NCBI GenBank assembly: GCA_030770425.1
Contig: JASJFT010000184.1
Span: 28,864 to 92,863 of the forward strand
DNA: 64,000 nucleotides
DNA from: Darksidea phi
Lineage: Eukaryota; Ascomycota; Dothideomycetes; Pleosporales; Lentitheciaceae
Direction of reading: 5' to 3'
The translations under genes were made by a program, and so were the position numbers. Within the stretch, counting starts at the first letter, position 1. Every line of letters starts with the position of its first letter. The notes under the pieces are model-generated. The model worked only from the letters and a program-made list of their open reading frames with translations. It was not told the DNA's origin and did not search any database. Below are positions 22,724 to 43,318 of this stretch, piece after piece.

Positions 22724-25700
22724 TTACATCTGTCTCTTCGAAACAATCCAATTTCTCCATTTTCTTGCCCATTTCCATTTCCCCAAGCTTTTGTCCTGTG
22801 TGCTGCCTTCCTGTATCTCCATCCCATCTGGCAATTCTGAGCTTGGCACCGTTATCCCCGTTAATATTGTAGACTGAGTTTCAGATGAACCAACTTCAGT
22901 AGAGCTAGGCACCCTTTGGGTGCCACTGCTCTCTCCTGTACTCCATGTCCCTTCGTCGTACGCTTCATTTCCTTCGACGGTCTGCTCCTCCTGCTTCGAT
23001 CCCATTAACGACCAATGCCCAAAGATCACGGCCCCTTTCTCATCAAGCTTCGCTAAATCAACCGGGACTGACCCCCTTGGCGCATTCTTTGGCTTCCATG
23101 ACTTCTTTGATACAAGAAACTGTACCGGGTCAAGAGGACATTTCCCATCGGCTATATTACCACCTAGGCATTCACAACGCTTGAACGGCTGACAAGGCGA
23201 GGTCCACAGTATCTTGCTCGTCATCTCGCCGATACCCAAGTCTGGTTCAGCCCTCTGGAGCCGCTTGTCGTATAGCATCTTGAGGGTGGACACAGAAGCA
23301 GTCATATATTCCTTGCCCTTAGGTACGGATTTCCAGCGACTGCAGACTGAGTCTGGGTTGTTAGGGCGAATAAGGTCGCCAAATCCGTTACCGAATATCG
23401 TAGTAATCCCGATGGAAGATATCAAATCGACCCAGCCATGGCCCCACCTGTTTAGAGGCTTGCTGCGCGTATTGACAGGACCGAGGGGATTGATGACATC
23501 GAGAGCGTCGAACCCAACAATGCATCTCCTAGGGTCTAGAGTCTGTGAGATCCTGATACCATCCTGCGAAGCTACCCCCGCCTGTTTGTCGACGAGAATC
23601 TCAATCGTATGTAATATCTTTTTGACTAGTTCGCCGAGGGTAGAATATTCTTTCTGAAACACTCCACCACGCATCCGGCTCTCCTTGACATATATATTTA
23701 GGTTGAGATTATCCCAACTCTTTAGTGTCTTCAGCGCCGCAAGACGTCCAGTGCAGCCATCCCAGGTATCCTTAAGTTTGCTGATGTCAAACACCCAGTC
23801 GAAGGGAGACTCATCCTCATTCTCGTCCAAATAGAGCGACACGCGTACCAGATGAAGTAGTGCGGATACTCCGTCGACGAGCCACGCTCGCTGATCTGAT
23901 ACATCGTAAAAAACGATAGGCTGGAGAGCAATCCACTTGAGTAAGCTGGGATAGTCGCTCTCTCTCTCAAGCCAGAATGGCTTGTCTTTTTTGTTTATAC
24001 ACATGTTGAGCCCACCAACCATTTCCGAACCCGCCTCGATATACAGGCGATCAATGATAATGGATGACGGTGAGTTTGGCAATCCAGATGCCGAAATGTT
24101 TTGGTTGGCCATTGTGTTTCCTTGGTTGAGGTGTTAGTGATGCTTCTGCCCTTCCAAGAAGGGGTATTGCTTACCGCAGAAGTCGGTGGCACTAGCACAC
24201 CATCCAATAATGTGACGGCTTCCTTCGACGGTCCGAAGAGAGAGTTCTTTGGGCGTGATGATATCCAATGCATCAATCCGAGGGTCGGTGTATGAAATGC
24301 GTTCGTCAGAGCCCATATTGATGAGTAAATGCCAATGAATGACGTTAGTGGTAGCCAAAGTTGCAACTAGAAGCGACCTGAATCCTTTCACGATTATCCT
24401 CTCACCCCATTGCACTACGTGCTGAGTTTGCATAAGGTAGGCCATAGTACCTAAAGACAACTCCAGACCAGTGTTTCGCTTAGGTCTTCGAGGAATTGGA
24501 TAGCCGCTAACCAAGACTGCGCTGCGGAAAAGAGGGCCCCAGCAGAGCCCACGAATAGTGTTCCAATGTTCGGGACCTTCTTGAAAGTCAAATGCGATTC
24601 GACAGGACCCTACTACCACTGTTGGTGTCGGAGACTCTTTCTCCTCAGTCTTCAAGTCGAGATTCTCAATACGTGGGGAGCAGGCTACAAAATGTTGACT
24701 TGATGGCGATGATCGCAAGGCCGAAGCCAACCATCCGATTTGCTCGGCTATTTCGGACACGTAGTAAAGCCCTCCTGTAACAGCGATTGAACAAAAAGAT
24801 GGAGGCTGAATTTGTGCTCTGAGATGTGCGCCCTTCGGCCCCGGAAGCTGGTCTATAGGGATAGGGAAATCATTAGCATTGTGCTGTTGAATGATACTCT
24901 CAGAACTTACGGGTATGTTCCTGACCTGCCGGAAGAGACATAAGCTCTTGAAACAAGTTGATGATGGAGTACCCTGTAACAGGCCACGTTTGGCCGATAT
25001 ACTCCCTTACAGTGGTAGCCTGAGCATCGTCCCATGAGCCTGTTAAGCAAAGGATTTTGCCTAAGATATCTGAGAGAGGGGGAGCTAACTCCTGATCATT
25101 GGTCAAGTACATGGGGTTCCAATCAAGATTAAATGTCATTCTCACTAATGAGGGTGGTCTTCGGCGACTCATCTGACGTAGCGGCTTTTGTGCTCGTAAC
25201 TGGTCCCGAAACATTACTCCGATATCTGACATCAAATCAGCATTTTCGCAGCCTAGTCGGTTATGCTGAGATACGCTAGATAGAAGCCACTGGTAAGCCT
25301 CTGACTGCTGGATGAATTCCTCGTAGTTTGGCAACTGATAAAGGGGTGGCTCATTGGCGTTGGCATCAGATATATTCACATTCCCACCAAGAACTGTTTG
25401 GAATGGGGCGGTTTCAGGTGGCCACTCCGATTCTTCGGGCCTTGAATCCGACGGCTTAACACCGGCGACCCAATCCAAGAGCATATCTGGGGGTTTCTCG
25501 AATGACAGGTGCTCTGACGACTTGTCTTCCTCTCCTGTAGTGTTTGACTGACTGTGAGCCTCGCTGTCTAATAGTCCGATAATTGCTCTACACATCATGT
25601 TAGTGCTTTTGGCCCCTTACGAAACCTGCATAATTACACATACTCCCGATTCCGATGAAGGATGACGGATGCTTCCCATTGAAATGGGTCAGAAGACTCT

Positions 25701-28700
25701 CCATACAACTTCCACGCAAATGTCTTCAACACATTGTCAAAGTATGACGATTGTATATGCGAAACGTTCGAAACACTTGGGATATTCTTGATATCCTGAG
25801 AGAGTTGACGAGCAAATTCCCGGATATAGAGTAGTTTTGGATCATCTGGGGTAGAGTCAACGGAGTAAGCGGTTTCTGCATCAAAGCCACCCATAGTGTC
25901 GTGCTTTTCAATTCTTGGGACGAGATTGAACTCGTCCATCGAGGCTTCGGCATTATCAGCGCCCAGAAGGCATGACTCCTTGGAACCTGATCCTTCTGGA
26001 ATACTGAGAGCTGGAAGCGGCGCTTCTGCTTTGGTCATGGGTAGTGAAGTGGCCGCTGTCGATGAGTAGTCTGCCCTACTCGACTCGTCTGCCCTACTCG
26101 ACTCGTCTGCCCTACTCGACTCGTCTGCCCTACTCGACTCGTCTGCCCTACTCGACCCGTCTGTATCCAAAACAGTAGACTGCGGCAGGCTTCCGACACT
26201 CTTTCTTTGATGATCATCTCTATAACCCCTTCGTCTAATTCTCGAAGTCTCTACAAACAGTTCTTTCTCTTCATTCGACGCTGGTGTCGTTTCTGGAATT
26301 TCTAGGTCTTCTGGAGTTTCTGGACAATGTTCGTCCCAAGTCCGATTGATCGATCCAAGCAGCATTTTATAAACGTTCCCGCTCCATGGTTCGGTATCGA
26401 TGATATCCCTAGTTAATGTCAGCTTACTTATTGCGCCGCGGGATTGGCTTACCTCGCAACGCCATGGTTAAGCAACTCATTATCCAGCACTTCGAGTCGT
26501 TTCGTACCTTCTTCGTTATTGCCGAATTGTATGAACTGGATCCCTACCTGGTCCAGCGCCATTCCCTTTTCGGAAAGTGATTTGATAAGTTCGACCACGC
26601 CGTCTAACCAGGAATCCCCCTCTTCCCATATTGCGTCGGTGAGAATATATATATTAATGCCCCATTTTTCCTTGCGCAATAATGAGGACAGTTTGCTTCT
26701 CTCTCCGGAAGGATTGAGATTGTACTCTCTTAATATCCTGCCGAGGAATGCCGTAATGTCCGACTGCCCAGCGGGTATTCTGCGGTTCAGCAATGCTACC
26801 AGCGGATCTCGGTTTTTTCTGTGACCCTTGTATGATGCAGGAGCATTGGCGAAGCGGAGTTTGATGCCGTCTGGATTCATTCGCTTGACCAGATAAGCTA
26901 GGGTCGAGAATGTACGCTTGACATCATCCCAGTGCTCTTGCATTGAGCTAGAGTCATCAATCACGAATATCTACGGATAGTCAGTAAGAAAACTCACGGA
27001 TGACTCAATCAGTACGTACCTGATCTCTTCCATCAAGTCTATACAGATATTTGTGACCAGGAAGTGGGGAACAGGAAGAATTCCGCTTCTTTTTCTTTAT
27101 CCATTCTTCAGCATCATCGATTGTAGCGTGCGGAAACTTTTCTCGACTTTGAAACTTTTTGGAACGTGATCCGGAAGTCTTTAGAGCAAAACTGGGATTC
27201 TTGATGTCATTGGCCTCTCGTTTGCTGGAAGGTTCGGTACTAGGCGCAGCATGCCCCCAGGTAATAGAAGCTGTCCGGTTGGCCTTCGGCGCCACATCCT
27301 CTAAAGGTGTTTTCTCCTCTTTTCTGGGGAAGGTGCGAGACTCGTGTCGACCGGAGTAAATTGTACGAGACGAACTTTCATTCCGATCGTGACCGGTTCT
27401 ACCCCTCTGGACGACCTCCTTATTGTATTCCATAAAATATCTAGAGCGGGCGCCGGTATTGTGCATGCACAGAGCGGTTTCATCAAGGTCGGATGCGGAG
27501 GATGAAGCTGAAAGAGATGGATATTCACTGTCCACGGCGCGTGCATCCCAGGGATGCAATTTTTGCCGCGCGGCTTGGACTTCGGGCGGGAGTTGCGGTG
27601 GCTGTCGAAGTTCAGTTTGGAAGATGCGTGGATATAGGGACTCAGGAAGGCCATTGGAGTCATACTCTGAACAGGCTTTGGCACTTTCCAAAGCCCGTTT
27701 GAACCGCTCGTAAATGTTGTTCGCGTCAGGGCGTTTGTCGGCTGTCAGAAGCATTTCTTCGATGATCGGCACTACCTCGGTTGCAATATAGTCATTCCTG
27801 CGATGTTCCCGGCGAACACGGACATGCATACTACGCACTGCTTCAAGCACGTTTTTGCCGTCGTGAAAGCAAATCTCATATGCCGTACCTCGAAGACCTG
27901 GGAGCTCATCGGTTGCGGCTTTGCGATTATTCTCGTATTGAACTAGGCCGTTCTTTCCCAAGACTGACCATACGAGAGCTTCGCTATATACACAGCCGAG
28001 GCTCCAGATATCTTTACTTGGATGCGCATCGAGTATCTTGTGTTCCGAGAAGGAGTCTTGTTCGTCCCGAAAGCATTCGGGCGCACCTATCGCGAGTCAG
28101 CAAAAAATCATAATGTTAGGAGGGGAGAATGATCAGACTGACTGAACGTTTGCGTGCCCCTCACATCTCGTCTTGGAGATTGCTTCCCCTCCTTCCCTGC
28201 GAGCTCGAAATCGGTGAGGCCTAGATCGGCAAGTTTGAAGGTAATGTCGTACTCGGATGGGCCGATATGCGACACGAGAATATTGCTAGCTTTGATGTCA
28301 TGGTGAATTCTGTATTCAACTCGTCAATAGATTGACGAACCCAAGAACGAGGAGCCTTACCCTATCAAGTACCGATGGCTGTTGCCAGGGTATGGAAGCC
28401 TATGAATCACGATGACTGGCTTGACCAACTCAAACAAGTTTCCCCAAAACGTCAGTATGTCTTCTCCTTTCCTGGGTGGGGCATGCTTCTCGAAGAAGTC
28501 ATCTAAGCTGCCACCGTCCACGTATTCTAGGAGCATATTGTATCTTTCATTCTGCGCCCACGATCCATAAAAGCGCGCCATGTTACGCAAGTCGCCATTC
28601 TGGTGCCTAATGATTTTGTATGCCTCAACTTCAGAATCATGATTTGGTACATCCTTTGCACGGCAAGTCTTGAGGACGAAAGCGTTCGATTTGGGGTTGT

Positions 28701-29302
28701 TCAGGCTCTGTGCAATGTCCTGTTAGTTTGTTCACTATAGTTACTTTCAGACCTTAAATACGTACTTGATCTTCGAGGAAGTTATAATCGGGATGGATAG
28801 TAACTTTGTATGTACTAGAGTCCGTACCTTCCTTGAGAGGCGTGAATGAAGTGAACGGCATTATCAGCTCTTTCGGGAATCTCTTGTCGACTAACCGATC
28901 CTTGCGGAAGGATTGGGCGCAAAATCGCCATCGTTCTGTTGCGAATTGTGGGAAGAAGTAGTTGCAGTCATCTGGTAGGTCTGAGGCACGAAGGGAGGGT
29001 AGGCAATCGTCGATTAGGCGCTCGTAGGGAATGAAGTGTGTGATGTATGTGCCCTTGTCGATGCTGATTAGCACGGCAAAGACCACCAAATATCCCGACT
29101 GGATGTATCTCCATAGAGCTGCTGGTTGATGATAGTGTTTCAAGAGCGTTAGGATTCTGGGCTTGTCGAGATAACGTCGCAGCGCTTGAATGGGTACAAA
29201 CGAACGCCTCAGTCCGGGTGAGCTCGGGTCGTTGGCCAATACCTCGATTTCTCGGAGGTGCTCGAGAAAATCAGCTGCCACGCCAGATGGGGACGCCATC
29301 AT
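22724..29302 (-). CDS. Protein kinase - vWA - C-terminal module fusion (block A)
   Basis: Nine exons join in phase to 2,052 aa: 28766-29302, 28361-28707, 28143-28309, 27020-28086, 26453-26970, 25638-26408, 24911-25587, 24175-24852 and 22724-24120. An N-terminal region of ~150 aa leads into a kinase domain with a glycine-loop-like EGTDSSTYKV, VLKTC lysine, HHDIKASN catalytic loop, LADLGL (DLG for DFG) and SAPEC. A linker rich in Ser and charged residues leads to a vWA domain with the MIDAS motif DDSSSM and LTDAIWEEGD. Then come an SSRADE hexapeptide array and about 1,000 further residues, including LTGSWDDAQATTVREYIGQ, GYPIPRRP, DPRRCIVGFDALD and WGHGWVDLISSIGITTIFG. That region is a large module I recognise from other multidomain fungal proteins but cannot name. 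The first four-fifths of the kinase-vWA part is paralogous to the gene at 34858-37851. All kinase residues are present, so activity is plausible. Confidence 0.8.
26066..26162 (+). repeat. 18-bp coding minisatellite (SSRADE array)
   Basis: About five units of 18 bp, almost identical to each other, encode SSRADE repeats on the minus strand inside exon 6 of the kinase-vWA fusion. The length is a multiple of three, so copy changes keep the frame. The block B paralogue ends before this position. Confidence 0.92.
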
Positions 29303-30226
29303 TGCGGCTACTGGATAGTAGAGCCGCGGGCACAGCACGAGGAAAGAAGGCTTCTGACCGTACAAAAGCAAAGACCGTTCGTGAAGCGGTCAGACCACTA
29401 CGAGGAAAGACGAGTAGTGTCCGCCGGAGGCTCTAGCTGTCTGGGAAGGGTGGCGCAGGAAATCAAGAAAGCCGTACCGCAGCGAACCAGCCACCACCGC
29501 GGCCACTGGTCTGTCGCGACGGAGCGAGCGTGTTTTTCGCTACGCGATCCTTATGAACCCAGAGGTCCTCGAAGAAACCTGGGGAACCGAGATGAACAAA
29601 GGCGCGTGAATGGCTTTTAGCGTTGAGAATGTTCACAAACAAGCGCGTAGAGGGTATCCAAGAACGAGGGCAAGGAGAGCAATCGAAAATACTGTATTTT
29701 TCTCCCGCTGCCAGTTTGGGGGGCGGACGTGGTGTGTGCGGGGAAAGCTGCTCTCAGGCAGCTGCATGACGGGGAGACCGAGTGCGCCTCGGCGGTTTAG
29801 TCCCCACCATGCAAACATCAATACATGTAGGCTGAGCTGCGATGCGCAAAGCAAATCAGCGGCCATGGAGTAGACTTCGGAGAGGACGTCGGAATTAAGT
29901 AGGAATCCTTAGACAAAGGGTCTTGATAATGGCGTCTACTATGTCAAACGCGGCTAGCAAGCGCGGCCATGTGTTGGTAGCACCTCGGAACATCGACCGA
30001 CCAGCACCCTTTGAATATTGATGTGTGCATGCCTAAGTCCCTAGCCGTTACCCGGTCAGTGTGACGTCACAATGCCTTGAAAAATTTCATGGGCCGGCAC
30101 GTGCCATTCGGATAGGCGCGAGTCCCATCGTGCACAGCCTTCGAATTCACAAGTATATGGAATACGAGATGCGCGAGGCACCAATATAACGATGTTGAGG
30201 TGATGAAAAATTTCACTACGAGAGTT
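29303..30226. other. Spacer inside block A
   Basis: Lies between the start of the kinase-vWA fusion and the end of the CorA-like pseudogene, equivalent to 37861-38966 in block B. It contains CAGTGTGACGTCAC near 30057, a CRE-like palindrome (TGACGTCA). No gene seen. Confidence 0.5.
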
Positions 30227-32560
30227 TTATACTAAACAAAAGATGGCGCAGAGAAGACCGCGCCAACCGCGAACAAGCCCTTGTCTAGTACAGAAGGAAA
30301 GTATACGTGCGTCACTGTATAAGGTGTGTAGTCTGACCCGAAGAAAAGCATCATTTTGAAGAGACAGGCTTTCGGACGCTCCATTACATGGCTGAGATAA
30401 TACTCGGACGGCATGCAAGTGACCCACACTTCCGCTAGATCGTCTCGGAAACAGAGAGCCTCCCTTTGCTCCACGATAGATCATGTACCACGCAAAGAAC
30501 GTGAGCGCAGTGAGGGGCAGCGCGATCGCAAGGTAGAGCCTGAGTCCTTTGATCTGAACATCTTGCCCACCATCTTCAAAATTTAAAATATTGGTGCTCA
30601 TGAATGTCTGTGGTCCACTTAGCTCTAAACTTTCAATTGCCGCTGGGATCCCACATACTGCAATGAACGTGGCTGGAAGGAAAAATAACGTGACGCTAGT
30701 GATAACCCGCATCCATACTGTTTCTTGCTGCGTCTTCTTTGCGATAGCTGCATATCAAGCGTTATTACATGCGCTCTTTTAGCGAACATTTCGTTCGCTT
30801 TCACACTGCGGTAGCGGAAAATGCCGTTGAGCTAGTGGCACAATTTAGTATGACCACTTAAGGCTTAAGGTGAAGCGCTTCGTACCAAATTCCTTCGGGT
30901 CTCGATCATTTTTAACAAAGTTTGTATTCGAGATTGCAACATCACATTATCCTTCTCCGCGCTAAGCACACACTTGTGGAATCGTTTCAAGTCTAGCTCG
31001 CAATCAGAGTGCAGATCTGAGGGGAAATCCGCATGATTTGTCGCGTATTCGTAGTGCCCCCGTAATTCTTGAAAGACTAGCGAGTTCTCTTGGACTACGA
31101 GGAGAGCCTCACGTGCCTTGTCTTCAATCTGCTGTACTAGCTGTAGATTGCCGAATGAGAAACAATCTCGTGGAGTCCCGTCGCCATCATCTGGAAGCGT
31201 TGGTGGGAGTTCAGGAGGGGCCAGAATAGTTTCGGAACTTTGAGGCGATGTTTTTATCCCGCTGGTTGTAACAGGTCGTCGTTCTACGTTTTCTGGCCGT
31301 GAAATGTTGTCACGGCCCAGTCTCTTGATGTAGCCACACAGTGAAGCATTGCGACTCTTCAGAGTACTCGTGTTTACTTCTTTAGCCCATTTACTGTGAA
31401 TATCGCAGCTTTTAGGCGCAGAGACGGTCTCTTCCAGAACTTCTACCAAAGTAGGCGTTCGTGAAGGTGTAGTAGGAGAGAACGGGTCCCATTGTGTGTC
31501 TGGACTACTGGGCGACTGAGCTGTTGTGGTCCGTGATAGTAGCGCAGGACGTCTAACCCAGTCGTGATTTGTAAAGATTGGACTGGGCGAAGCGAAGGGG
31601 CCTGGGTTCTCCTCTATGGGGATAGCCAACGCGTTGGCCGAGTATTCTTGAAAACGATTATCTAGATCATTGATGTACCATAGCCAGTTCTCGCATGCCC
31701 AGTCGCATAACAGCAGATGTGTTCCCAACGAGGCAGAAAATGCCCCACTAAGTGACCCCGTCCGATACCCAGGAAGTGCGGTAGAAGCTTCAGTGATTCG
31801 CTTCTTGATCAACTGATTGCCTTTGACGTTGATCCACAGGGAATGACCAGTGTCGAGGTCGAACGAATGATACATTGCAGATTGCCGGATTGACCACGGT
31901 AGATGTCCCTGGCTCTTCGCTGGTTCCACAGACCGCAGGTTGTAACAGAAACGAAGCTCTTTTCCGGATCGGCCCAAGTTCGGGATTTTTGGGCCCCGAC
32001 ACCTGTCGTCGAGGCGGGATTCCTCTCTTAAGCCGCTGAAATAAAAGTCTTGCGGGTGCACCTGCCTGCCGAACGGATAGATGAAGTCTATGAATGATGG
32101 AATAACTTGATGATAAGAACAGATGAAATTTAACATTGCGCGCGTATGTCTTCAAGGGGGGTCGGCTGTGAGAAGCTTGTAAGAAACTGAGGTTGTTAGG
32201 TCTAGCGCTATTAACTTGTGCGATGTACTTGCATAAATCGACATTGTGGATCTCCTGCCCCAATTGCTCTGCGCAGCACTTCCTTAAGCTCGTCGAGCGT
32301 GGTCGCGCAAGTTGGCTGAAAATCTGCGAACCCCGCTTTGTCAACAACTTGTTAGCGTTCAATTGGAGGTAACCTTCACCTTCATCCCCACTTGCGAGAT
32401 CCTAGAAATCCACAGCAGCCTGTTTTTCATCGAAAAGGCGGTTTTCATCGGATCGTAGCCGATCTGAATATGCTTTTAGGTTGTGTAAGAGCGACCCATG
32501 CTGAAGGAGATTCTGAGGATAGGTATCGAACTGCTCGCAGGATTGAATCAAAGAGTCCAT
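30227..32560 (-). pseudogene. CorA-like membrane protein, disrupted copy (block A)
   Basis: Aligned by eye with the intact copy at 38967-41180, this copy carries several lesions. (1) The first exon (ATG 32558-32560, MDSLIQSCEQ) has an in-frame TAG at 32402-32404 where the intact copy has TTG. (2) One extra base just before 32136 shifts the frame relative to the paralogue. (3) About 22 nt are missing at 30741-30776, so the helix before the first TM segment (LNGIFRYRSVKANEMF) no longer reads into MRVITSVTLFFLPATFIA. (4) The stop that ends the intact copy is lost, and the frame runs about 60 residues further. The second intron also has a GC donor (GCAAGT). The 423-codon middle, from 32136 to 30865, is still open, so decay may be recent or a truncated soluble product may be made. 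Confidence 0.78.
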
Positions 32561-32985
32561 TGTCACAGCAAGACGTTAAGAATCATGAAGCGCTCAAGTG
32601 CATTTAGTTCACCCGTGAAGGAGTTTGATATGACAGCACAGCCGCTTTCAGCTTGACCGCCGAAAATACAGCACGTGATCCCTTGCCCCGCTCGGCCGCC
32701 CTTTTTGACGCATGTCATGGAGAGCCTTGAGATAGGCCCAAATATGGCACGAGATGGCCCCAAGCCAATGAAAACCCCGTGTATCCTCGAGGATCGTAGT
32801 TTACCTTGTGTATCTCTCCTTCCGTAGCGCAGACCAGCAAGTTCGTCCCGTTCTTCCCAGTTTCAAGTTAGCAACAGTGTGAACACCTCAAAACGAGCGC
32901 ATACTTCGCTCAAACTCCGGGGAAACCAAAACTGGTATATGCTACCTATGACCTGGGAATAGATGTTTAGTAGCCCCATTTTGCG
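32561..32985. other. Spacer inside block A
   Basis: Between the CorA-like pseudogene and the companion relic. No open frame of note. Confidence 0.5.
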
Positions 32986-32989
32986 TAGG

Positions 32990-33210
32990 GCAATTTTCCT
33001 TACGCGAGTGTAAAAGCCATGAGGCCCGAATTTTATCCCTCAAAGAAATTTTCCAATGTCGCTTTGGGCAACCGGTAGGTGTCGAAAGTGTCCCACATGT
33101 ATCTCATTTCGGTAAGGCTGATTCCACGTACGTGGCAGTGAGGAATGCCAATAGATGCAGGTGTGTGCCAAGAGGACCGGTGTAGGTACCGGAAGTTTGC
33201 GCGTAATGTG
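32990..33210 (-). pseudogene. Relic of the short companion gene (block A)
   Basis: Matches the block B companion in pieces and in three frames: a YWHSSLPRTWNQPY piece, then MRYMWDTFDTYRLPKATLE, then KFGPHGFYTRV. The corresponding block B residues are YWVLVLPRSPSNQPY, MTYGWDTFPTYNLALADLE and KFGHYDFFIKV. At least two frame changes separate the pieces, and a stop (TAA) falls between the second and third. The order is preserved, so this is a decayed duplicate rather than chance similarity. Confidence 0.65.
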
Positions 33211-33700
33211 AAGAAGGCTGAGGCGGTAAGCCTCATTTCACGGTTCCTTCGGCAATTTATGTCAGGCCATCAGTCTGGCTTCTGAGGCTCTGCGAGATCG
33301 GACTGAGAACGATGATTACCTCCAATTCCCACGTCTGGCCTTCAGCTAGCGCACATGGAGCCAACAAAAAGGCAAATATGCGCCTGAAACGAAGTAAACA
33401 GACTTCCATCTAAGTCTTGTCGAATGGTAGGCAGAACGCCTCTAGCTGCGCGCCAGGGAGCCGTAAAAGTATCGTCAATTCGCATGCATGTAGTGTGTTG
33501 TAAAGGCCTAAATGCGACGGGCGTAGACCATTTCGTTACTGGCTGGATGTGCTTAGCTCTGACTAAATTGCTCTTTCGGTAGATGCGGTCGCTGTGAGCA
33601 TGCAGCAAGTCTGCAGGAGGGTCACGGGTCGGCCTCGAGTGAAGTTCAGCCTTGTTGATAAGGCAATTTTACAGGTATCAATCAGCAAATCCCAGCATGA

Positions 33701-34857
33701 CTGGTGTTACTTCTTCCACCAATAGAGCGAAGACCATCCCACGTCGTATCGGCGATAGTGATGTGGTTGTGGGTTCGTTTCGGTACTGCAAACGTCAGCG
33801 AGGAGGCAAAGGTCAGGTGAACATGTGCATGAGGGGACTGCAGCAGACAAACAACGCTTGTAGAGCGATTAAAGAAGGCAATGATTAAAAGCAATGAGCG
33901 GTAGAGACGGTATACCAGACCAAGGGTAGCAAACGTAACCGACTGTCTACTTATTATCTTATAGAAAAATTCTTTATCAGCTCTTTAACTACGATATTAC
34001 TCATCCCCATCTCTTAACCCTAAAAAGCGCCTGCGGGGCTATATCTCGAAATTCATCTGCCATTGTCCGGTACCGTTGATCGATCGTCCCATAACTTCCA
34101 ACGTAGCCACGCAACTGGAGGGCGGCGTCGCCACAGGCGCGTCGGTGCATCGTTATCTCTAACCCCGCGTTATCTATAGCTATTATTCAAGTTTTAACGA
34201 CGCGATGGCTGCTACTCATTCGATAAGTATTTGGTTTGGATTTGCATAGTGGGAGTCTCTTTGTAAGGTCCGCACGAAACGCGGTAGGAGTTTGTATGCA
34301 ATGTGGTCCTATATCCCAACCTTATACACGATATGTCGGAAAATCGTATATATAGGTGCCATGCTCTTTTCATCGTATAGAACATGAATCTGCATAGCAA
34401 TTGCTAAATACAAACAATGCTCATTACATAAGTCATTAAGTTTTTACTTCGTAGGCCGGTACTACCCGTGCGCAAAGTAGATGTAGTGGAGTAAGTGATC
34501 GTTAATACAAATAGTACGAGTATCGAGCGTACCGTCGTACGCTGTAGAGCGAAGAGGAAAACGTTTGTTCGAAATAAATGCTGATATCCGCCCACTACAA
34601 AGAGAAAGTTACAAGGAAGTGAAATAATAGGCGTAGTATGGGTATCGGGTATAAAGATAAGGACGTGAATAAAAATCAAATAACTGCGTATCGGAAACAA
34701 GTCGGTCCGCCAAAGCGGGCAAGGTAGCAATTCGAATTCGTTCTGCGCAAAACTGCTGACGAGGGTATCGGTTTCCCAAGTACACCGTGGGAAGCTTTTC
34801 ATGAGAGAAAATATCAGATCGTATGGTCGCAACAAAAATGAGAAATGACACGTCAAA
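33701..34857. other. Spacer between block A and block B
   Basis: AT-rich spacer and 3' flank of the block B kinase gene. Includes TATATATAGG-like motifs near 34349. No counterpart of the C-terminal module of the block A kinase is seen here. No gene called. Confidence 0.5.
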
Positions 34858-37851
34858 TCACCTCCCGGATTGGTTGAGCGGCGTTGATACATTTGAAGGC
34901 CCAGCGACCATAGGCGGCTGCGCTGGATTGGGGCGATATTCGTCCCAGGTTCGGTCAATTGCTCCAAGAAGCATCTTGAAAAAGTTGCCACTGTAGTGCT
35001 CAGTATCAACGATATCCCTGTCAAACGTCAGCTTCTTCTTTTTATGTCGCGATATTACCTACATTGTAACGCCACGATCACGCAGCCCATCATCCAGTAA
35101 TCTTAATCGATATGTCCCCTGTACGTCGTCGCCAAACTGCACAAACTGAATTCCCACCTGTCCCGACTGTAAGCCCACGTCCACTAGGCCCTTAATAGCA
35201 TCAACGACACTATTTAGCCCACCATCGCCGTCTTCCCAGATACCATCTGTAAGAACATAGATATTTAAGCCGAACTTCTTCTTTCGGAATAAAGAAGAAA
35301 ATCCCTTTTCCTCTGTAGAGAGTTTGAGCTTGTACTCCCCGAGTATCTTCCCAAGCGTGAGTCCGATGTCACATTGCCCGCCGCGGTCTATACTTTCCAA
35401 GAAGGAAATTAGCGGTTGGCGATGTTTACTCCGACGTTTGCGCAGAGGATTGCTAGTGAGACGTAATTCCATCCCGTCGGGGTCCTTTCGTTTGACAAAA
35501 TAACCCAGTATTTTCAGCGTACGCTTGATCTGAGACCAGTATGGGTCCATCGAAACAGAGTCATCGACTAGGAAAACCTGATCTCTTCCATCAAGGCGAT
35601 TCAAATATGCTTGACCTTTCAGTGGAGGCGTTCTGGGGTCTCGCCCCGCTTTCTTTATCCAGGCCTCAACCTCGTCAAGTGTGGCCTTCGGCAACTGTTC
35701 TCGGACTGTAGTGCCGTTTGTATATGTTCTGCATGGTTGTGAAGAATGAGCATGCGCATTAGAAGGTTGGTCCTGCCGTTCGTTGGAGGTTTCAGGCTGA
35801 GGCGTGAGAGACGGCGCCAAGACAGAGGCCATCGACGTCCAACCTGGAGAAGGTGCAGTGTCGTGCTCCCTTGCTTGAGGATCAGATGTCGGACGACTAG
35901 GGCTCGAGATCAGAGGCGAGCCATTGGAGTGTTTCTGCGAAGCGGTTCTAAATAGTCCATTTCTTCCACTATGTCGATGCGCGATGTATCCGGGATCTGG
36001 ACTAGGGAAAGAGGGGGACATCTCCCCGCTACTAGATTCTGAAATAAGTGGCGGAGGGGATGGTACTCCATTGACCCTGGAATTCCTGCGCGAAAAGTTC
36101 ACTGGATGTGATGTCATGGACGTCCCAAATTGGATACCAAGGGCTGGGGCCGAGAATTCAGGGGGAACCTCTGGGGGCAGCTGACGGTCTGTAGCCATAT
36201 CGCTGGGGATGCGGAAGGCAGGAGGCCATACGGGTGGGCTGTGTTGGCTAGTCGGAGATTGTGGGTTTGCTTTAGCCTTTCGCAGGACCCGACCGAAAAA
36301 GCGTTCATGAATGCGCTGGGCATCGCAGCGGGATGAGGCATTTTCAAGCATATCCTCGATGATGCCGACAATGTCCTTGATAATAGGATCGCAAATTCGA
36401 GATTCTTCGCAAATTCGAGTATGCATCTCGTCCACTGCAGAGAGAACCTTTTCGCCATCGTGAAAGCCGCCGCTATATGCCGAGTGACGGAGGCCTGGGA
36501 GCTTGTCGGTTGCCATTCTTCGCTGCCTTCGGTATTCGTGCAGTCCTTCTATGCCTAGAACTAACCACACCGCGACTTCGCTGAAGACACATCCCATGCT
36601 CCAAATATCTTTGCCGGTTTGAGCTTCGCGGATCGCATGCGGTGAGGAGGAGTTGGTCTCATCTCGGTAGCATTCAGGTGCACTATACATCTGAGTTCCA
36701 TGAATATCGCGCCTCCGAAGCTCGTTCTTCTTTTGGCCTGGACGCTCAAAATCGGCCAAGCCGAAATCGGCGAGCTTGAATGTGACATCAAATTTAGATG
36801 TACTAGTACGGTTGTTCGAGACGAGGATGTTGCTGTCTTTGATGTCATGATGGATGCTATGTTACTAGTCAGTTTTGTTCAAACTAAAACTCTAGACTTG
36901 GATGCTCTACTCACCCTTGTAGATATCCATGTCTGTTGTTTGGGTCGGGGTGCTTATGAACTCGCGCGAGTAGGGTGATTAGGTCAAACATCTTCTCCCA
37001 GAATATTATTATATCCTCGCGTTTAGTCGGTGGCGCAGTCCTTTCGAGGAAGGACCGTAGTGTGCCTCCATCTGCATACTCTAGGAGTATGTTATGAATC
37101 TGCCTTTGTCTCCATGACCCGTAGAAGCGCAGCATGTTACGTAAGACGTCTTGCTGACTACCCAGGTCTTTATAAGCTTGAATTTCGCCGTAATGGTAAT
37201 GGACTTTGCTTGCTGGGCAAGTCTTGAGAACGAAGGTGCTCGTCGCGGGCGCGTCGTACTCTTCCTGCGCGTGGCCAGTTAGTGTCTTACTTCGCTTATA
37301 ATATTGAACAACGACATGCGCACCTCTTCCAGAAGTTCATTATAGCCAGGGTGGATATCGACCTTGTACGTGCAGGAGTCGGGCCCTTCACAGAGGACGT
37401 CGAAGTTCGTGATCGGGAGGATCCGCTTGTCGTGGAGATTTGTCTCGTTTAGACGGCCTTTCCTGAGGCGCTGAGCGCAGAAACGCCACTGCGCTTCATA
37501 AAAATCGGGGAAGAAGTCCTTGCATCCATACGGTAGGTCGTTGTTGAGCAAAGGTAGAAACTCGTCGGCAAGATGCTCGTGGGAGAGGAACTGGATGATA
37601 TGTGCACCCTTATGGATAGAGAGCAGGATGGCAAAGACAGCCAAGTAACCCCGCTGGATCGACCGCCACTCATTTGCGGGGTTGCTGTAGCAGTCCAGAA
37701 GGCGACGAATGGTGGACTCGTTTAGGTAGCGACGCAGCTCGGCTTCGGGCACGAATGAACGCTTCTCATCTGGCGAGGTCGGGTCATAGGCCAACACCTC
37801 TGCCTGCCGTATTTGCTTGAGAAAATCATCGACGTATGGCGGAAATTGCAT
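34858..37851 (-). CDS. Protein kinase - vWA fusion (block B, intact)
   Basis: Four exons (37324-37851, 36915-37264, 35063-36856, 34858-35017) give 943 aa in phase. The start may instead be three codons earlier at 37860. Residues ~1-150 form a helical N-terminal region shared with the block A copy. The kinase domain has TFVLKTC (VAIK-type Lys), HHDIKDSN (catalytic Asp and Asn), LADFGLADF (DFG), SAPECY (APE) and KDIWSMGCVFSE. A ~250-residue Ser/Pro-rich linker follows. The vWA domain starts RDQVFLVDDSVSM with the full DxSxS MIDAS motif, and also has LTDGIWEDGDGG and VGIQFVQFGDD. It ends about 50 residues after the vWA. The last intron uses the donor GTAGGT; reading through would hit a stop at once. 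Kinase-vWA fusions recall alpha-kinase/vWA proteins in layout only, since this kinase is of the ordinary Ser/Thr fold. Confidence 0.87.
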
Positions 37852-37860
37852 GGTGACCAT

Positions 37861-38966
37861 TTAGGGTAGTCGTCGGGTCGGTACCTGGGGGGCGGAAGCG
37901 GTGCAACAGGAGATGGGCGTTGTGACATCTATATGCGAGAAGAGAAAGGCGGCCTGGCTCACGACCAGACGCGAAGAACAATGCGCGTGCGTGCATCTGC
38001 GCGTCACCTGCAGACCGAGGCGGGCAGTGCGACATGTGCCTTAGGGTTTGTTCGAGCCCGGCGGGAGTTCGTACGGCTGAAAGCCAAGAGTCAGATCTGC
38101 AGAGGGACGTAGCCTCATCTAGGTGCATCTGTCGGCCGAGTCGATGACAATGAAAAGAACTCGTTAATATGAACAGCGGTGTGCGATGGCCAGAAAAACG
38201 GCAAACATAGATTGTATCTTTCATACGGTATCAAGGGATCAAGGTTGAAGCTGGGGGTGTGGTAGCGACGGGCTCTCTGGCGGGCAGCGGCGGTAGCATC
38301 ACATCCATATGGCTGTGCTCAGGCGCTTTTCGCTTTTCTGCATGTGTGCTGGTCAAATTTGCATGCCCAGAAAGAGACATTGACAGGTACGCATCGGCAA
38401 AGGCCTGGAGAGGACGTTGAATTTGGGACGAATCCTGAGAGACAAGCACTCAACAGTGGGGTATACTATACCAGACGCGGTTAGGTAAGGCATCTGGGGT
38501 GCTGAGCCACAGCAAGTGTGGAGTTTAAGGTTCCGACGTCAACTGCGCCCCGGCTTTATTGTGTTCGCCGTTAGAAGTACGCCTCGTAAATACACAGCCA
38601 CTTGAAGGACGATACCGAAAGCTAAAACACCACTTCTGCGAGGAGATCCACACCTTATCTCTACGATTTTGGCTTCTATGTACGCAGCCTTGACGCCGCA
38701 GTCTAGCTAGCGGTTTTGTACAGTATGCATATACGATGTGGACTTTTGGCTATGACCAAAGGCCTTTCCTTCCGCTTTAAGAGAATGTGACGGATATCCA
38801 TGCACTGTGAGTGCGGAAGTGAGGTATTAAGCGAGCGTGCAGGGGTGTTGTGAAAGCCCCGGTACGAATGTGGGTTTGCACTGTCCCAGCTCAAGAGCGC
38901 ACCAGAGCTGCAAACCCATCCAAGGTATACAAGAGGATAGCAGCCGAAGCGACGGAAGTATAATAT
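37861..38966. other. Spacer inside block B
   Basis: Between the kinase-vWA start and the end of the CorA-like gene; probable promoter of the kinase gene. No gene recognised. Confidence 0.5.
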
Positions 38967-41180
38967 TCAGACTTCCTCGACGTCACCACCGGTTCGTTTC
39001 CAAAGAGGAGTTCCCCTCTTCGCTGCCCATTGATAAATGAACCAGGCTAGAAATGTGAGCGCTGTCAAGGGTACTGCAATTGTAAGGTAAAGAACAAGAC
39101 CCTGCTTCTGCAAATCCTTTTTACCATTATCGAACTTTAGTATATCGGTACTCATGAATGTCTGCACGTGTTATTACGGTTCTAGTGCAGAATGTTGAGC
39201 CATACTTACTGCAATGAACGTGGCGGGGAGGAAAAAGAGGGTCACGGTTGTAATGACACGCATTGAAACCGTTTCTTGCTCCGTCTTTTTTGCGATATCG
39301 TGCGTTTCCAATGTTAGCATCTCCATACGGTCCGCTGATAGTTGCGCCTTTTTTGCGAAAGCTTCATTCGCCTTGATGCCCCGATGCTGGAGGATACAGT
39401 TGAGCTTGCGGAACGAGTTAGTAGCTGTTTTTTAGTGCTTTTAATTGGATCCATCTCACCAAGTTTCTACGGTTCGCTAGCGACCGTAGTAGAGTTTCTG
39501 TCCTTGACTGAAGCATCGAAAGGTCCTTTTCCACCCCGAGTAAGCATTTTTCAAACCGCGCTAGATCCGCTTCGCAATTAGACCTTAATCGTGAAGGAAA
39601 TTCCGAATGATTTGTCGTATATCGATAATGTTGCCGTAGTTCTTCAAGCACTCCCGAATTGAGTCGGAGCACGAGTAGAGCTTCCTGTGTTTTATCTTCA
39701 ATATGTTGGACACGCTGTAGATCTCTGAAGGTGAAGTTATCTGTCGGCTTATCATCGCCGTCGTCGGTAAAGGTAGGTGGTAGCACCGGAGGCTTCAGTT
39801 TGTTTTGCGAAGTTGGAGGTAAGGTTTGTAAATCGCTGGTTGACTGCTCCACCGTACTAGATCGCCACCATTTGTATAGACTGACCGACTTAATGCGAAC
39901 ATAAAGCGAAGCAAGGCGTTCCTTTAGAGCATTGTTGTCAGCGACGTTATGTTTGGTCCGCTTATGATTATTGTGACATGGCCCATCGACAGCTACTGCA
40001 GAGTGCGAGCAATCTTTCAACGTTGTAGTTCGCGAAGGTACCGTAGATGAAAACCCGCCCCACTTGGTGCGGGAGCTGCTAGGAGACTGGGCCGTTACGG
40101 CTCGGGATAGCGGCGTGATTTCCCAAGATTGGACACGAGGGCTCATACAGAGCGGAACTGGCGAAGCAACCGGGCTCGGAGCTTTGTCGATCGGCAAAAC
40201 CAATGCGTCGCCAGAAAGAGCCCGAAGTTTATCCTCTAGATCGTTGATATACCACCGCCAGTTCTCGCCCGACCAATCGCAAAACAGCAGATGTGTTGAA
40301 AGCGATGCGGAAAAGGCCTCGCTACGTGACTGAGGAAAGGGCGCGGTGGTAGCCTCAGTGATTCGATCTCTGATCAACGTGTTGCCTTTGATATTTATCC
40401 ATAGCGATTTGCCGGTTTCGAGGTCGAATGAATGATACATCGCTGACTGGCGAATCGACCATGGCAACTCTGGATCACTTGACGAACGCTCCACGGACCG
40501 TAAGTTGTAACAAAACCGAAGCTCCCTCCCAGATCGCCCTAGTTCAGTTATCGGTATCCCTCGACGCTTTACTTCAAGCCGAGACTCCTCCCTGAGGCCG
40601 CTAAAGTGGAAATCTTCGGCGTAAATCTGCTTGCCAAACGGAAAGATGAAGTCCAACATGGATGGCATTACTTGATGATAGGAAAAAAGAAAGTTCAGCA
40701 TCGTGCGAGAAATCTTCAACGCGGCACGACTGTGGGGGGCATGTAGAAAACTGATGGTGTTAGGTGCAGTTTGATTGGCTCGTGACGTGTACTCACATGA
40801 ACCGGCATTGCGGATCGCTCTGTCCTGGCCTAAGTGCTTCGCGCAGCACTCTCACAAGCTCTTCCAGGGTGGCGACGCACTCGTGAGCACCTGCCAATAA
40901 TTCATCTCGTTAGCGCTCCGCGGCTGCTCAATTGCATGCAGGCAGTCTCACCTGGGTTTCCGCCTTCAAAATCCAAAATATCGACAGCTGCCTGACTCTT
41001 ATTGAAAAGGCGGCCCTCCTGTGATTTTAATCTGTCTGAAAATGCTTTGAGGTTATGATTGAGGTAATCATGTTGCACTAGGTTTCGCGGATACAGCTCG
41101 AAATCCTCGCAGGACCGATTGAGGGAATCCATCAGAACAGCATAAAATTGGAAACTAGAACCTCGTTCGACTACATCCAT
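38967..41180 (-). CDS. CorA-like two-TM membrane protein (block B, intact)
   Basis: Five exons (40952-41180, 40797-40890, 39460-40729, 39210-39404, 38967-39161) give 660 aa in phase. The N-terminal part is that of the fungal CorA-like family: LYPRNLVQHDYL, LLEELVRVLREAL-type helix with QCRFI, NFLFSYHQVMPSMLDFIFPFGKQ cut across exons 2-3, and SLWINIKGN. A helical stalk (FTFRDLQRVQHIEDKTQEALLVL, split here by position only) leads to TM1 (VITTVTLFFLPATFIATF) and TM2 (LVLYLTIAVPLTALTFLAWF). The TM1-loop-TM2 layout near the C-terminus is that of CorA magnesium channels, but the GMN motif after TM1 is absent; MSTDILKF stands there. The product is probably a plasma- or organelle-membrane protein and need not be a Mg channel. 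The branch point CTAAC in intron 3 is perfect. Confidence 0.85.
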
Positions 41181-41439
41181 CTGACCATCTACAATTTATA
41201 CGAAAAGAGGACGGTGTAAACAGAGGGCAACCATTCTAAATTTGCAGACAAGGTGCATTCGCGGTGCCAATCGCGCCGATGGCTTCGCCTAGGCTCACAC
41301 TATCACATGTCCTCAGCCCGCTGGGCAGCATATGTACTCGTGACGATCCATACATGCGTGAAGGCTGTGTTTGCCTTCTTCTAACCCTATCCCTTATTTT
41401 CCTTTCGCTTTTCAGCGAGTTCATTCTTCTCAGCCTGCA

Positions 41440-41763
41440 TCAAATGTCAGCGCGAGCGATGGCATTCAAATGAGTCCATACAGCCGTCAGCTTCCGCTGA
41501 ATCCAGAAGTAATATAAGCCACTGTCAACCTACAATCCGACAATTAGCGGGCAACACACTTGGACTAGCGCAACATCGACTCACCTTAATGAAAAAGTCG
41601 TAATGCCCGAACTTTTTCGTCAGGTACGCTTCAAGATCCGCAAGCGCCAAATTGTAGGTTGGAAAGGTATCCCAACCGTAAGTCATTGTGTAAGGCTGAT
41701 TTGAGGGACTACGTGGCAATACGAGAACCCAATAAGGATAGGTGTGCTTCTGGATCGGACCGG
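41440..41763 (-). CDS. Short companion protein upstream of the CorA-like gene (3' part)
   Basis: Two exons can be supported: one from about 41763 to 41586 (YWVLVLPRSPSNQPYTMTYG, WDTFPTYNLALADLEAYL, KKFGHYDFF) and one at 41440-41529 (VDSGLYYFWIQRKLT... to a TGA). The intron between them has a GTGAGT donor and TTGTAG acceptor and keeps phase. An upstream stop at about 41772 means at least one further 5' exon must exist, but I cannot place it. The aromatic-rich YYFWIQRKLT segment is also found beside CorA-like genes elsewhere as far as I recall. Paralogous pieces lie at 32990-33210. The function is unknown. Confidence 0.5.
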
Positions 41764-43318
41764 TCTATACACCGGTCGGGTAAAGTGGAGTACGACACGA
41801 CTAAGGCTACTCAGGTTGGCCTTAGGGAAACCTCGAAGAATTTATGTCAGGCCGATGTTCTCTTCTGTGAGGCTCTGCAAGCTTCAGCTCGAATGGAAAG
41901 CTTTCTGGAGCTTGCAATGCCAGTCTCAAGCTCTCTCGCCTCTAAATTGCAGCGAGGCAAATGTTCGCCTGTTCCGCACTGACAGGATCGTCTGTGTGAG
42001 TCGGCCCAATGGCAGACGTACATGCCCTTAGGTGTGCGAAGAGAAACAGCCAACATGCCATGTCCCTGTCATGTGCTGCAGAGGCATAAGCACGAGACAG
42101 ACCCTAAAAACACCGTCATTGGCCGCAGATGAGCGGTTCCGGGGGGAGAAATTATCGGTAGATATGGTTGCTGCAGACCGCCTGCGGGCGGGCGTCAAAG
42201 CCTTCTGGTGGATGGTTCGGCCTTGCTGATAAGGCAAACTTGCTTCCAGCCCGATCTGTGAACGTGTGCTTCAGTTAACGAATCAGAGCGCTAATGGCGT
42301 CACCTATCGGCCCGTAAAGATGAAGGCGGAACTGCAGCGCATCGACGATGGCGACGACACACTCTGCCTAAAGTATGCTGTGCGCAAGGTTAGCTTGAAG
42401 CCAAAGCCAAATGTCCAGGGAGTGCAAAAGGCGAACGAAGCTCTCACAACGTCGAGCAGGCAAAGGATGAGGGCAAACTCAAGCCGATAGACCATAAGGC
42501 AGCCTCATTCGAAAAGACGGTGAAGAGTGAATTGAGTAAATGCAGTCAGACAACAATCCGTGCATAATTGACGGCTGACATGGCACGGGTGGAAAAGAAA
42601 TGGGAAGGGCACAATGGTGGTGAGAACAGAGCCGCACGCCTGGCCAAAGCTTCTGGCTCTCTACCTATTACGTAAGCCATACTGGTTTTGGAGCTCACTC
42701 GGCCACTATCTAGCTACCATCACGTATCCAATGCTAACAATACCTACATAAAGCTGTATCTTACCCGACACTCGTACTTCGACCTAAATTAGCAAGCTTC
42801 TACAGTTATCGTTGTCACAAAGTACGCTTTCAACAACCATCTTACCGCCAACGTCGATCCAATGCCATCACGAATCTTTCGGCAGGTTACATGACTATCC
42901 ATTTGTTCTCTCTGCAGGATGGTTTTTATTCTGTGAATGCGCCGTTATTTGGACTCCTAACTTCTCCAAAGATCCCGACAGCCCAGGGGCGACTGTTCTG
43001 GAACGCAATATGGTTATCATTTTACTCCGCTAAATGTCCCTTTTACTAAAACAAAGATTCATATTCCAATTGCTTCGACTCATTCTGTTTGAAAACGAAG
43101 ATTAGATCTCAAGGTTTACTATTGTGGCACGTCAATGACACGTACTGAGCGAAGGCCTCTGCATTGAGTTAGGCCTAGCGAAGTACGGCTAAAATATCTA
43201 AAGGGAGTATCAAGTAGTAAATCCTAACAGGAAACTACTGTGGAGTGACGCAGGACCAGTGTAAGTTCTAAGCTTCACCTCGAAAGTTCATTTGGTGGAG
43301 CCGACCACGCGGATAAAC
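41764..43318. other. Upstream flank of block B and spacer
   Basis: 41.76-42.25 kb matches 33.2-33.7 kb in short non-coding pieces. Beyond 42.25 kb the duplication can no longer be seen. No gene recognised to 43318. Confidence 0.5.

What the first reader, a model, noticed from the sequence alone, without database searches (positions are those of the whole stretch)
22724..42250. Tandemly duplicated module: kinase-vWA protein + CorA-like membrane protein + short companion
Three adjacent same-strand genes occur twice in the same order. Within each copy the protein kinase is fused to a vWA domain and sits next to a gene for a two-TM CorA-like protein. Seen: paralogy of all three genes and of non-coding flank. 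Known: vWA domains act in ligand or partner binding and can change shape on metal binding; CorA folds form pentameric membrane channels. Inferred: kinase-vWA may be a sensor/transducer acting on the membrane protein, possibly a self/non-self or stress-response module. Conservation as a unit through duplication argues for linked function.
Basis: partly seen in the sequence, partly recalled or inferred. Interest (0 to 1): 0.85.

Follow-up and report, generated by a model that had tools for sequence, protein, structure and literature searches.

The report
Recurrent fungal kinase–CorA channel gene trio
In this fungus and its relatives, a gene for a protein kinase, a gene for a CorA-like membrane channel and a tiny third gene keep turning up side by side even though their order and direction are shuffled, which suggests they form one working unit of unknown purpose, possibly a self/non-self or cell-death switch.

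Summary
Two divergent copies of small gene, CorA-like gene and kinase lie on the minus strand. Copy 1 is intact; copy 2's small and CorA-like genes are broken, and its kinase–vWA frame runs on into an extra ~1,050-residue module. In this genome 9 of 10 CorA-like loci of this type have a family kinase within 3 kb (6 by search alone, 3 by reading DNA), against 0 of 39 Pfam CorA hit places. Of 16 tabulated fungi with both proteins, 13 carry them on one contig; Endocarpon has consecutive locus tags. The small gene's best candidates beat all controls at 8 of 9 paired loci, 6 clearly, and it is joined to the CorA model in 10 of 120 listed relatives. Order and direction vary, so linkage itself seems maintained. 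vWA was found in 3 of the 9 kinases; the kinase with its helical N-domain is the constant part. Best reading: the kinase controls a CorA-fold channel lacking the GMN filter, perhaps in recognition or cell death. Function is inferred, not shown.

The parts
41387..41686 (-). Copy 1 companion gene, 3 exons (41686-41585, 41529-41482, 41434-41387), 65 aa
   Evidence: Spliced model with GT..AG introns of 55 and 47 bp; homologous N-termini in 10 of 120 listed relatives; 63.1 bits with a profile that leaves it out, controls at most 8.3
38967..41132 (-). Copy 1 CorA-like gene, 5 exons, 644 aa, CorA-type C-terminus with two hydrophobic helices
   Evidence: Model with GT..AG introns; up to 69% identical to PF26616 proteins; CorA fold for relative P0002
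34858..37860 (-). Copy 1 kinase-vWA gene, 4 exons, 946 aa: helical N-domain, protein kinase, linker, vWA-like domain
   Evidence: model; Pfam Pkinase E 1.5e-16; relatives up to 56% identical; model of relative P0121
32866..33107 (-). Copy 2 companion remnant: start at 33107, in-frame stop at 33035, exon-2 remnant further on
   Evidence: best spliced candidate in the region 9.7 bits, carried by the exon-2 remnant
30416..32560 (-). Copy 2 CorA-like gene, broken: in-frame TAG at 32404-32402 and frameshift near 30745; long central exon still open
   Evidence: tblastn of copy 1 against copy 2: pieces in frames 3, 2, 1, 3; longer branch than copy 1 (0.75 vs 0.15)
25644..29302 (-). Copy 2 kinase-vWA part, exons 1-6, open
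   Evidence: model; homologous exon by exon to copy 1
22724..26408 (-). C-terminal module predicted to be fused to the copy 2 kinase-vWA (exons 6-9); similar sequence on 7 other contigs of this genome
   Evidence: open frame through 4 exons; no Pfam match
37861..38966 (.). CorA-kinase spacer of copy 1; 79 bp stretch shared with the copy 2 spacer (29303-30400)
   Evidence: 72% over 79 bp, E 5.5e-7; score 46 vs best of 50 shuffles 27

Best explanation
The window holds two copies of a recurrent fungal three-gene module: (i) a ~65-aa companion, (ii) a two-TM protein with CorA fold, PF26616 family, without the GMN ion filter, and (iii) an active-looking protein kinase with a helical N-domain and an exchangeable C-terminal part (vWA here). 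Shown by computation: the components, the CorA fold of a relative, conserved catalytic residues in relatives, and linkage of the genes at dispersed loci and in other fungi. Inferred: the C-terminal part senses a ligand or partner, the kinase phosphorylates or gates the CorA-like channel, and the small protein restrains or couples the two. Further inferred: the channel is a membrane executor in recognition or danger-induced cell death, which would explain why linkage is kept although order and direction are reshuffled, why one copy decays, and why the sensor end is swapped.
For: Own genome: CorA queries of two types find the same 10 loci with the N-terminal CorA-like domain; a third finds 6 of them and no new one. 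9 of 10 have a family kinase at gaps of 650-2,745 bp between matched pieces, against 0 of 39 Pfam CorA hit places; chance of 9 of 10 within 5 kb is 7.7e-20 to 1.7e-12 for 30-200 kinases placed at random. The kinases at C64, C424 and C379:252k were seen by reading fetched DNA; Pfam calls Pkinase in all paired kinases tested, and an N-domain profile from vWA-type proteins beats 2,000 shuffles for each of the 7 other paired loci. Other species: 13 of 16 named species in both lists share a contig of identical length (expected 0.46, P 2.5e-21 if genomes are 35 Mb, an assumed size); Endocarpon tags GJ744_000819/000820 are consecutive; one Teloschistes model (P0169) holds CorA and kinase parts. The linked species include Dothideomycetes, Eurotiomycetes and Leotiomycetes; Teloschistes is in Lecanoromycetes. 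Companion: best spliced candidates beat all 34 control regions at 8 of 9 paired loci, 6 of them clearly. Paired paralogues diverge together: Mantel r 0.86, 2/20,000 for 9 pairs; r 0.55, 135/40,320 without copy 2. In trees with 10 relatives each, copy 1 joins the Lentithecium protein in both families and copy 2 falls outside that pair. Catalytic K, E, HxD H, N and DFG D in 53 of 53 aligned relatives, HxD D in 50. CorA fold: all 50 structures listed are CorA entries (46 by title, 4 rows of 5jtg by recall), best E 9.8e-06. Outside: mimpvic32, CorA-like, one of two candidate incompatibility genes in Morchella (PMC8940278); fungal cell-death pathways often lie in 2-3 gene clusters (PMC12881547 passages); bacterial CorA effectors act in CRISPR immunity (PMC10600005 passages).
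Against: No experiment, expression or polymorphism data. A shared contig is not a measured distance. 3 of 16 species do not share a contig, and C120 is an orphan CorA fragment. By hit lists alone 6, not 9, of 10 loci are paired, and control loci were not read base by base in the same way. Eight more loci match only the C-terminal TM part of the CorA query and none is near a listed kinase; counting them gives 9 of 18. 32 of 41 kinase hit loci are not near such a CorA gene (many are general kinases). Mantel weakens to 416/5,040 and 386/5,040 when close relatives are left out. The companion query itself finds only its own locus in the genome at E up to 1, and the C132 companion alone does not clearly beat shuffles (173 of 4,000 score as high). 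Foldseek superpositions are loose (rmsd mostly 14-22 A over the whole chain). HET next to an unpaired family kinase was confirmed at 1 of 4 loci looked at; HET genes are numerous in fungi (recalled), so it is not used. Morchella mimpvic32 was reported as PF01544 and not tested here for PF26616; in that paper barrages also form between strains with the same alleles. Companion function and physical interaction are untested.
Confidence: 0.5

Rival explanations
1. A kinase-regulated ion channel for ordinary cation homeostasis or stress: the kinase adjusts a CorA-like transporter; the linkage is for co-expression.
For: CorA fold of a relative; catalytic residues; vWA with MIDAS-like pattern could sense metal.
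Against: GMN filter in only 1 of 120 listed relatives; broken genes in copy 2; gene order and direction not kept, which fits poorly with a shared promoter; Pfam CorA hit places show no such link in the hit lists.
Confidence: 0.22
2. A selfish poison-antidote or spore-killer-like element: the CorA-like protein is the poison, and the small protein or the kinase the antidote; tight linkage is needed for survival.
For: Linkage kept while order is shuffled; decay of the CorA-like and small genes in copy 2 while the kinase frame stays open.
Against: Nine paired loci in this genome and relatives in several fungal classes, more like a gene family than a driver; no presence/absence polymorphism data.
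Confidence: 0.13
3. The trio hitch-hikes as a unit (ancient segment duplicated and moved as a block) without functional tie.
For: Paired paralogues diverge together, as expected if blocks were copied whole; the tandem pair in the window is such a block.
Against: Different directions at C24, C132, C379 and C424 and a different order at C441 mean that the block was rearranged inside, yet stayed together; 13 of 16 species share a contig.
Confidence: 0.08
4. Local accident of one tandem duplication.
For: None beyond the single window.
Against: Linkage at 7 further dispersed loci and a shared contig in 13 of 16 species.
Confidence: 0.01

Closest known systems
NLR/HeLo gene pairs of fungi (nwd2/het-S, PNT1/HELLP) and protease/gasdermin pairs (PMC12881547 and PMC9815663, passages seen)
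   Same: Clustered 2-3 gene units with a receptor-like protein that has exchangeable C-terminal parts next to a membrane protein
   Different: Kinase instead of NLR or protease; CorA fold instead of HeLo or gasdermin; a shared amyloid motif was not looked for
CorA effector of type III-B CRISPR (SAM-AMP signalling; PMC10600005, passages seen)
   Same: A divergent CorA-family channel in a gene cluster with partner enzymes, thought to act on the membrane
   Different: Bacterial, bound by a nucleotide signal; here a kinase partner, eukaryotic, PF26616 N-domain
PF26616 'CorA-like transporter domain' proteins of fungi
   Same: The window protein is a relative by sequence (up to 69% identity)
   Different: I found no paper naming PF26616 and none describing a kinase partner
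RIPK3-MLKL necroptosis (PMC12881547, passages seen)
   Same: Kinase acting on a cation-permeable membrane executor (analogy)
   Different: No homology claimed; MLKL is a pseudokinase with a four-helix bundle, not CorA

Membership tests
PF26616 CorA-like transporter domain proteins | Sequence similarity to annotated members | tested here: met
   All 120 listed relatives (of 269) carry PF26616; the Pfam copy here lacks the model, so it was not run on the window protein itself
CorA superfamily (fold) | Alpha/beta cytosolic domain, long stalk helix, two C-terminal TM helices | tested here: met
   Model of relative P0002 (pLDDT 74.7), stalk helix 499-608, second helix 637-669; all 50 Foldseek rows listed are CorA entries (46 named so, 5jtg by recall), best E 9.8e-06, TM by target about 0.4-0.6
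CorA Mg2+ channels (functional) | GMN filter after TM1 (motif recalled) | tested here: not met
   GMN in the last 160 aa of 1 of 120 listed relatives; typical sequence there ATFMSTDI or STVMSTDI
Eukaryotic protein kinases | Catalytic K, E, HxD, N, DFG | tested here: met
   K, E, H, N and DFG D in 53 of 53 aligned (of 66 found), HxD D in 50 of 53; Pfam Pkinase
vWA domain | Pfam vWA over cut-off in the window protein; MIDAS DxSxS..T..D | tested here: inconclusive
   Pfam below cut-off; D 52/53, final S/T 52/53, T 52/53, D 39/53, middle S 29/53; P0127 and P0176 carry PF00092
Fungal NLR/HeLo incompatibility pair | NB-ARC/NACHT receptor and HeLo, HET or gasdermin executor | tested here: not met
   No such Pfam domain in the window proteins scanned
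Vegetative incompatibility system | Allelic differences that trigger rejection | not testable with these tools
   Single genome, no population data

The most novel reading that the evidence does not exclude
A so far undescribed class of fungal recognition/cell-death system: a sensor kinase with exchangeable C-terminal domains gates a CorA-fold membrane executor with the help of a ~65-aa partner, present as nine linked, divergent sets in this genome and kept linked by selection in several classes of Pezizomycotina.
Probability: 0.3. Interest if true: 0.9.

Novelty: new variant of a known kind. Interest (0 to 1): 0.72.

Why it matters
Two fungal protein families for which I found no described role, PF26616 CorA-like proteins and N-domain kinases, are tied together by linkage, along with a tiny gene that some database models fuse to its neighbour (10 of 120 listed). 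That gives each a partner and a testable role. If the trio is a recognition switch, CorA-fold channels would join HeLo and gasdermin proteins as executors in fungi, parallel to CorA effectors in CRISPR immunity.

Tried and rejected
Rejected: chance neighbourhood; a plain Mg2+ channel by motif; vWA as the defining partner (the window's vWA part is found at C95 twice and C434 among paired loci, and at two loci away from them, C223:352k and C212). The idea that other family kinases sit beside HET or NB-ARC genes was confirmed by Pfam only for HET at C379:222k, 1 of 4 loci looked at, and is not used. WD40-like tails at C441 and C424 were an impression from reading; Pfam found none. The first companion model (2 exons) was replaced by the 3-exon one. 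The first stitching of loci used a wrong orientation and was redone. The companion query found nothing in the protein database and only its own locus in the genome. Scans for CorA relatives in viral and prokaryote contigs found none. Paper searches for a published kinase-CorA link found none (open-access papers only; two searches listed 20 of 41 and 20 of 30 papers, mostly seen as listing; the one paper, PMC5371717, seen in passages, names a CorA-like protein only in a gene table); controls are mostly shorter (3.2-7.5 kb) than the test regions (6.3-10.5 kb); C24 (9.4) and C95b (9.7) are only just above the control maximum of 8.3, C120 and C64 are below it, and the C64 companion was seen by eye only. 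Only 120 of 269 CorA relatives were listed, so absence of a species means nothing. Rows left out: P0159, P0165, P0167-P0169, P0175, P0178-P0180, P0182-P0184 and P0186 from the kinase alignment (53 of 66 used); 40 of 120 listed CorA relatives were aligned for the fold; 10 relatives per family in the trees; the eight TM-only CorA hits in the 9 of 10 count.
Full report
WHAT IS IN THE WINDOW. The window is fungal DNA, G000:C95:28864-92863 (fungal by its relatives). Self-comparison shows two divergent copies of a minus-strand block. Copy 1: companion 41686-41387 (3 exons, 65 aa), CorA-like 41132-38967 (5 exons, 644 aa) and kinase-vWA 37860-34858 (4 exons, 946 aa). Copy 2: companion remnant with a stop at 33035, CorA-like gene with an in-frame TAG at 32404 and a frameshift near 30745, and an open kinase-vWA gene 29302-22724 of nine modelled exons that runs into a further ~1,050-aa module. 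Sequences similar to this module lie on seven other contigs. The duplication is old: in both families, in trees with ten relatives each, copy 1 groups with the Lentithecium relative and copy 2 lies outside that pair.

The kinase query and the CorA query gave hits on the same distant contigs. Ten loci carry the CorA-like N-terminal domain: all ten are found, six of them again, which adds none. Eight further loci match only the C-terminal TM part and were set aside; none is near a listed kinase. Reading DNA already held, plus 25.5 kb fetched, nine of ten have a family kinase near by: C95 twice, C434, C441, C24, C132, C64, C424 and C379; the exception, C120, is a fragmentary CorA gene beside an esterase-like gene. 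Gaps between matched pieces are 650-2,745 bp. Of 39 hit places of the ordinary Pfam CorA model, 0 have such a neighbour in the hit lists. Three of the nine kinases were found by direct reading, which the controls did not get; by hit lists alone the count is 6 of 10. With 30-200 kinases scattered at random the chance of 9 of 10 within 5 kb is 7.7e-20 to 1.7e-12.

ORDER AND DIRECTION. Companion, CorA, kinase on one strand: C95 twice, C434, and C64 (companion by eye). C24: companion divergent. C441: CorA, companion, kinase. C132 and C379: kinase divergent from CorA. C424: kinase convergent. Linkage therefore survives rearrangement inside the block.

OTHER SPECIES. The protein search lists give each protein's contig length. 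I tabulated 46 names among the 120 listed CorA relatives (of 269) and compared them with the 66 kinase relatives; sixteen names are in both. In 13 of 16 both proteins are on a contig of identical length, including contigs of 39, 69, 143 and 174 kb; Glonium, Peltula and Oculimacula do not match. This shows a shared contig, not a distance; in Endocarpon, however, the locus tags are consecutive. In Teloschistes one gene model (P0169) contains CorA, kinase and further parts, most simply neighbours merged by annotation. The species include Dothideomycetes, Eurotiomycetes, Leotiomycetes and, for Teloschistes, Lecanoromycetes (one species each). In ten of 120 CorA models the companion forms the N-terminus, six of them joined at or within a few residues of the same inner CorA site. 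I read these as merged neighbours, but a real read-through transcript is not excluded.

THE COMPANION. Direct searches with the companion found only its own locus in the genome and nothing in the protein database. A script listed two-exon candidates with GT/AG borders in ten test and 34 control regions and scored them with profiles that left out the locus under test. Controls reached at most 8.3 bits; C95a 63.1, C379 33.9, C441 28.5, C424 22.2, C434 20.4, C132 13.2, C95b 9.7, C24 9.4, C120 7.1, C64 4.3. Test regions are longer than most controls, so the two values just above 9 are weak. Against their own shuffles and a profile built without them, C441, C434 and C424 are reached by 0 of 4,000, C379 by 1, C132 by 173.

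COMPONENTS. CorA-like: in the Foldseek search of a relative's model all 50 rows listed are CorA entries (46 by title, the four 5jtg rows by recall; best E 9.8e-06, loose superposition); GMN in 1 of 120 relatives. Kinase: catalytic residues conserved in 53 aligned relatives; the fold search lists kinases, IRAK4 first; a helical N-domain precedes it, and a profile of this domain from vWA-type proteins finds it in the seven other paired kinases, 0 of 2,000 shuffles each. vWA: among paired loci found in C95 twice and C434 only. C132 has a DUF7580 match behind the kinase.

CO-DIVERGENCE. Identity matrices of paired kinases and CorA N-domains correlate: r 0.86 (2 of 20,000 permutations) for nine pairs, 0.55 (135 of 40,320) without copy 2, 0.42 (416 of 5,040) without copy 2 and C434, 0.47 (386 of 5,040) without both C95 copies (an earlier run with eight pairs, before C379 was known, gave 0.90, 0.68 and 0.61 for the first three settings). 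So the signal rests partly on the close relatives.

MECHANISM. Inference only: sensor end, kinase, channel, with the companion as restraint or coupler. The recognition/cell-death reading draws on the kind of linkage, on the decay of copy 2, on the Morchella candidate gene (PMC8940278, section 15 and passages) and on clustered cell-death genes in fungi (PMC12881547, passages and first part of section 11; PMC9815663, passages). I put the functional tie at about 0.9, kinase control of the channel at about 0.5 and the recognition role at about 0.3.

NOVELTY. Searches for a published link found none, within an open-access library that lacks most subscription papers and seen mostly as listings.

Noticed in passing
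22724-26408: C-terminal module of the copy-2 kinase-vWA gene belongs to a family with relatives on seven other contigs of this genome and no Pfam match; predicted fusion.
   Followed up: partly
26069-26163: 18-bp tandem repeat (5.3 copies) in frame in the linker between vWA and the C-terminal module.
   Followed up: no
L025:2601-3542: A HET-domain reading frame (PF06985, E 2.2e-16) directly follows another kinase of the same N-domain family at C379:220-222k.
   Followed up: partly
P0007, P0020, P0024, P0032, P0078, P0090: Six database models join the companion to about the same inner CorA site (before the SFLDF-like motif); annotation artefact or real alternative transcript.
   Followed up: partly
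L019:10-2358: C132 kinase is followed in the same frame by a DUF7580 match (PF24476, E 2.9e-10).
   Followed up: no
2475-2547: tRNA-Ala (TGC) gene on the plus strand.
   Followed up: no
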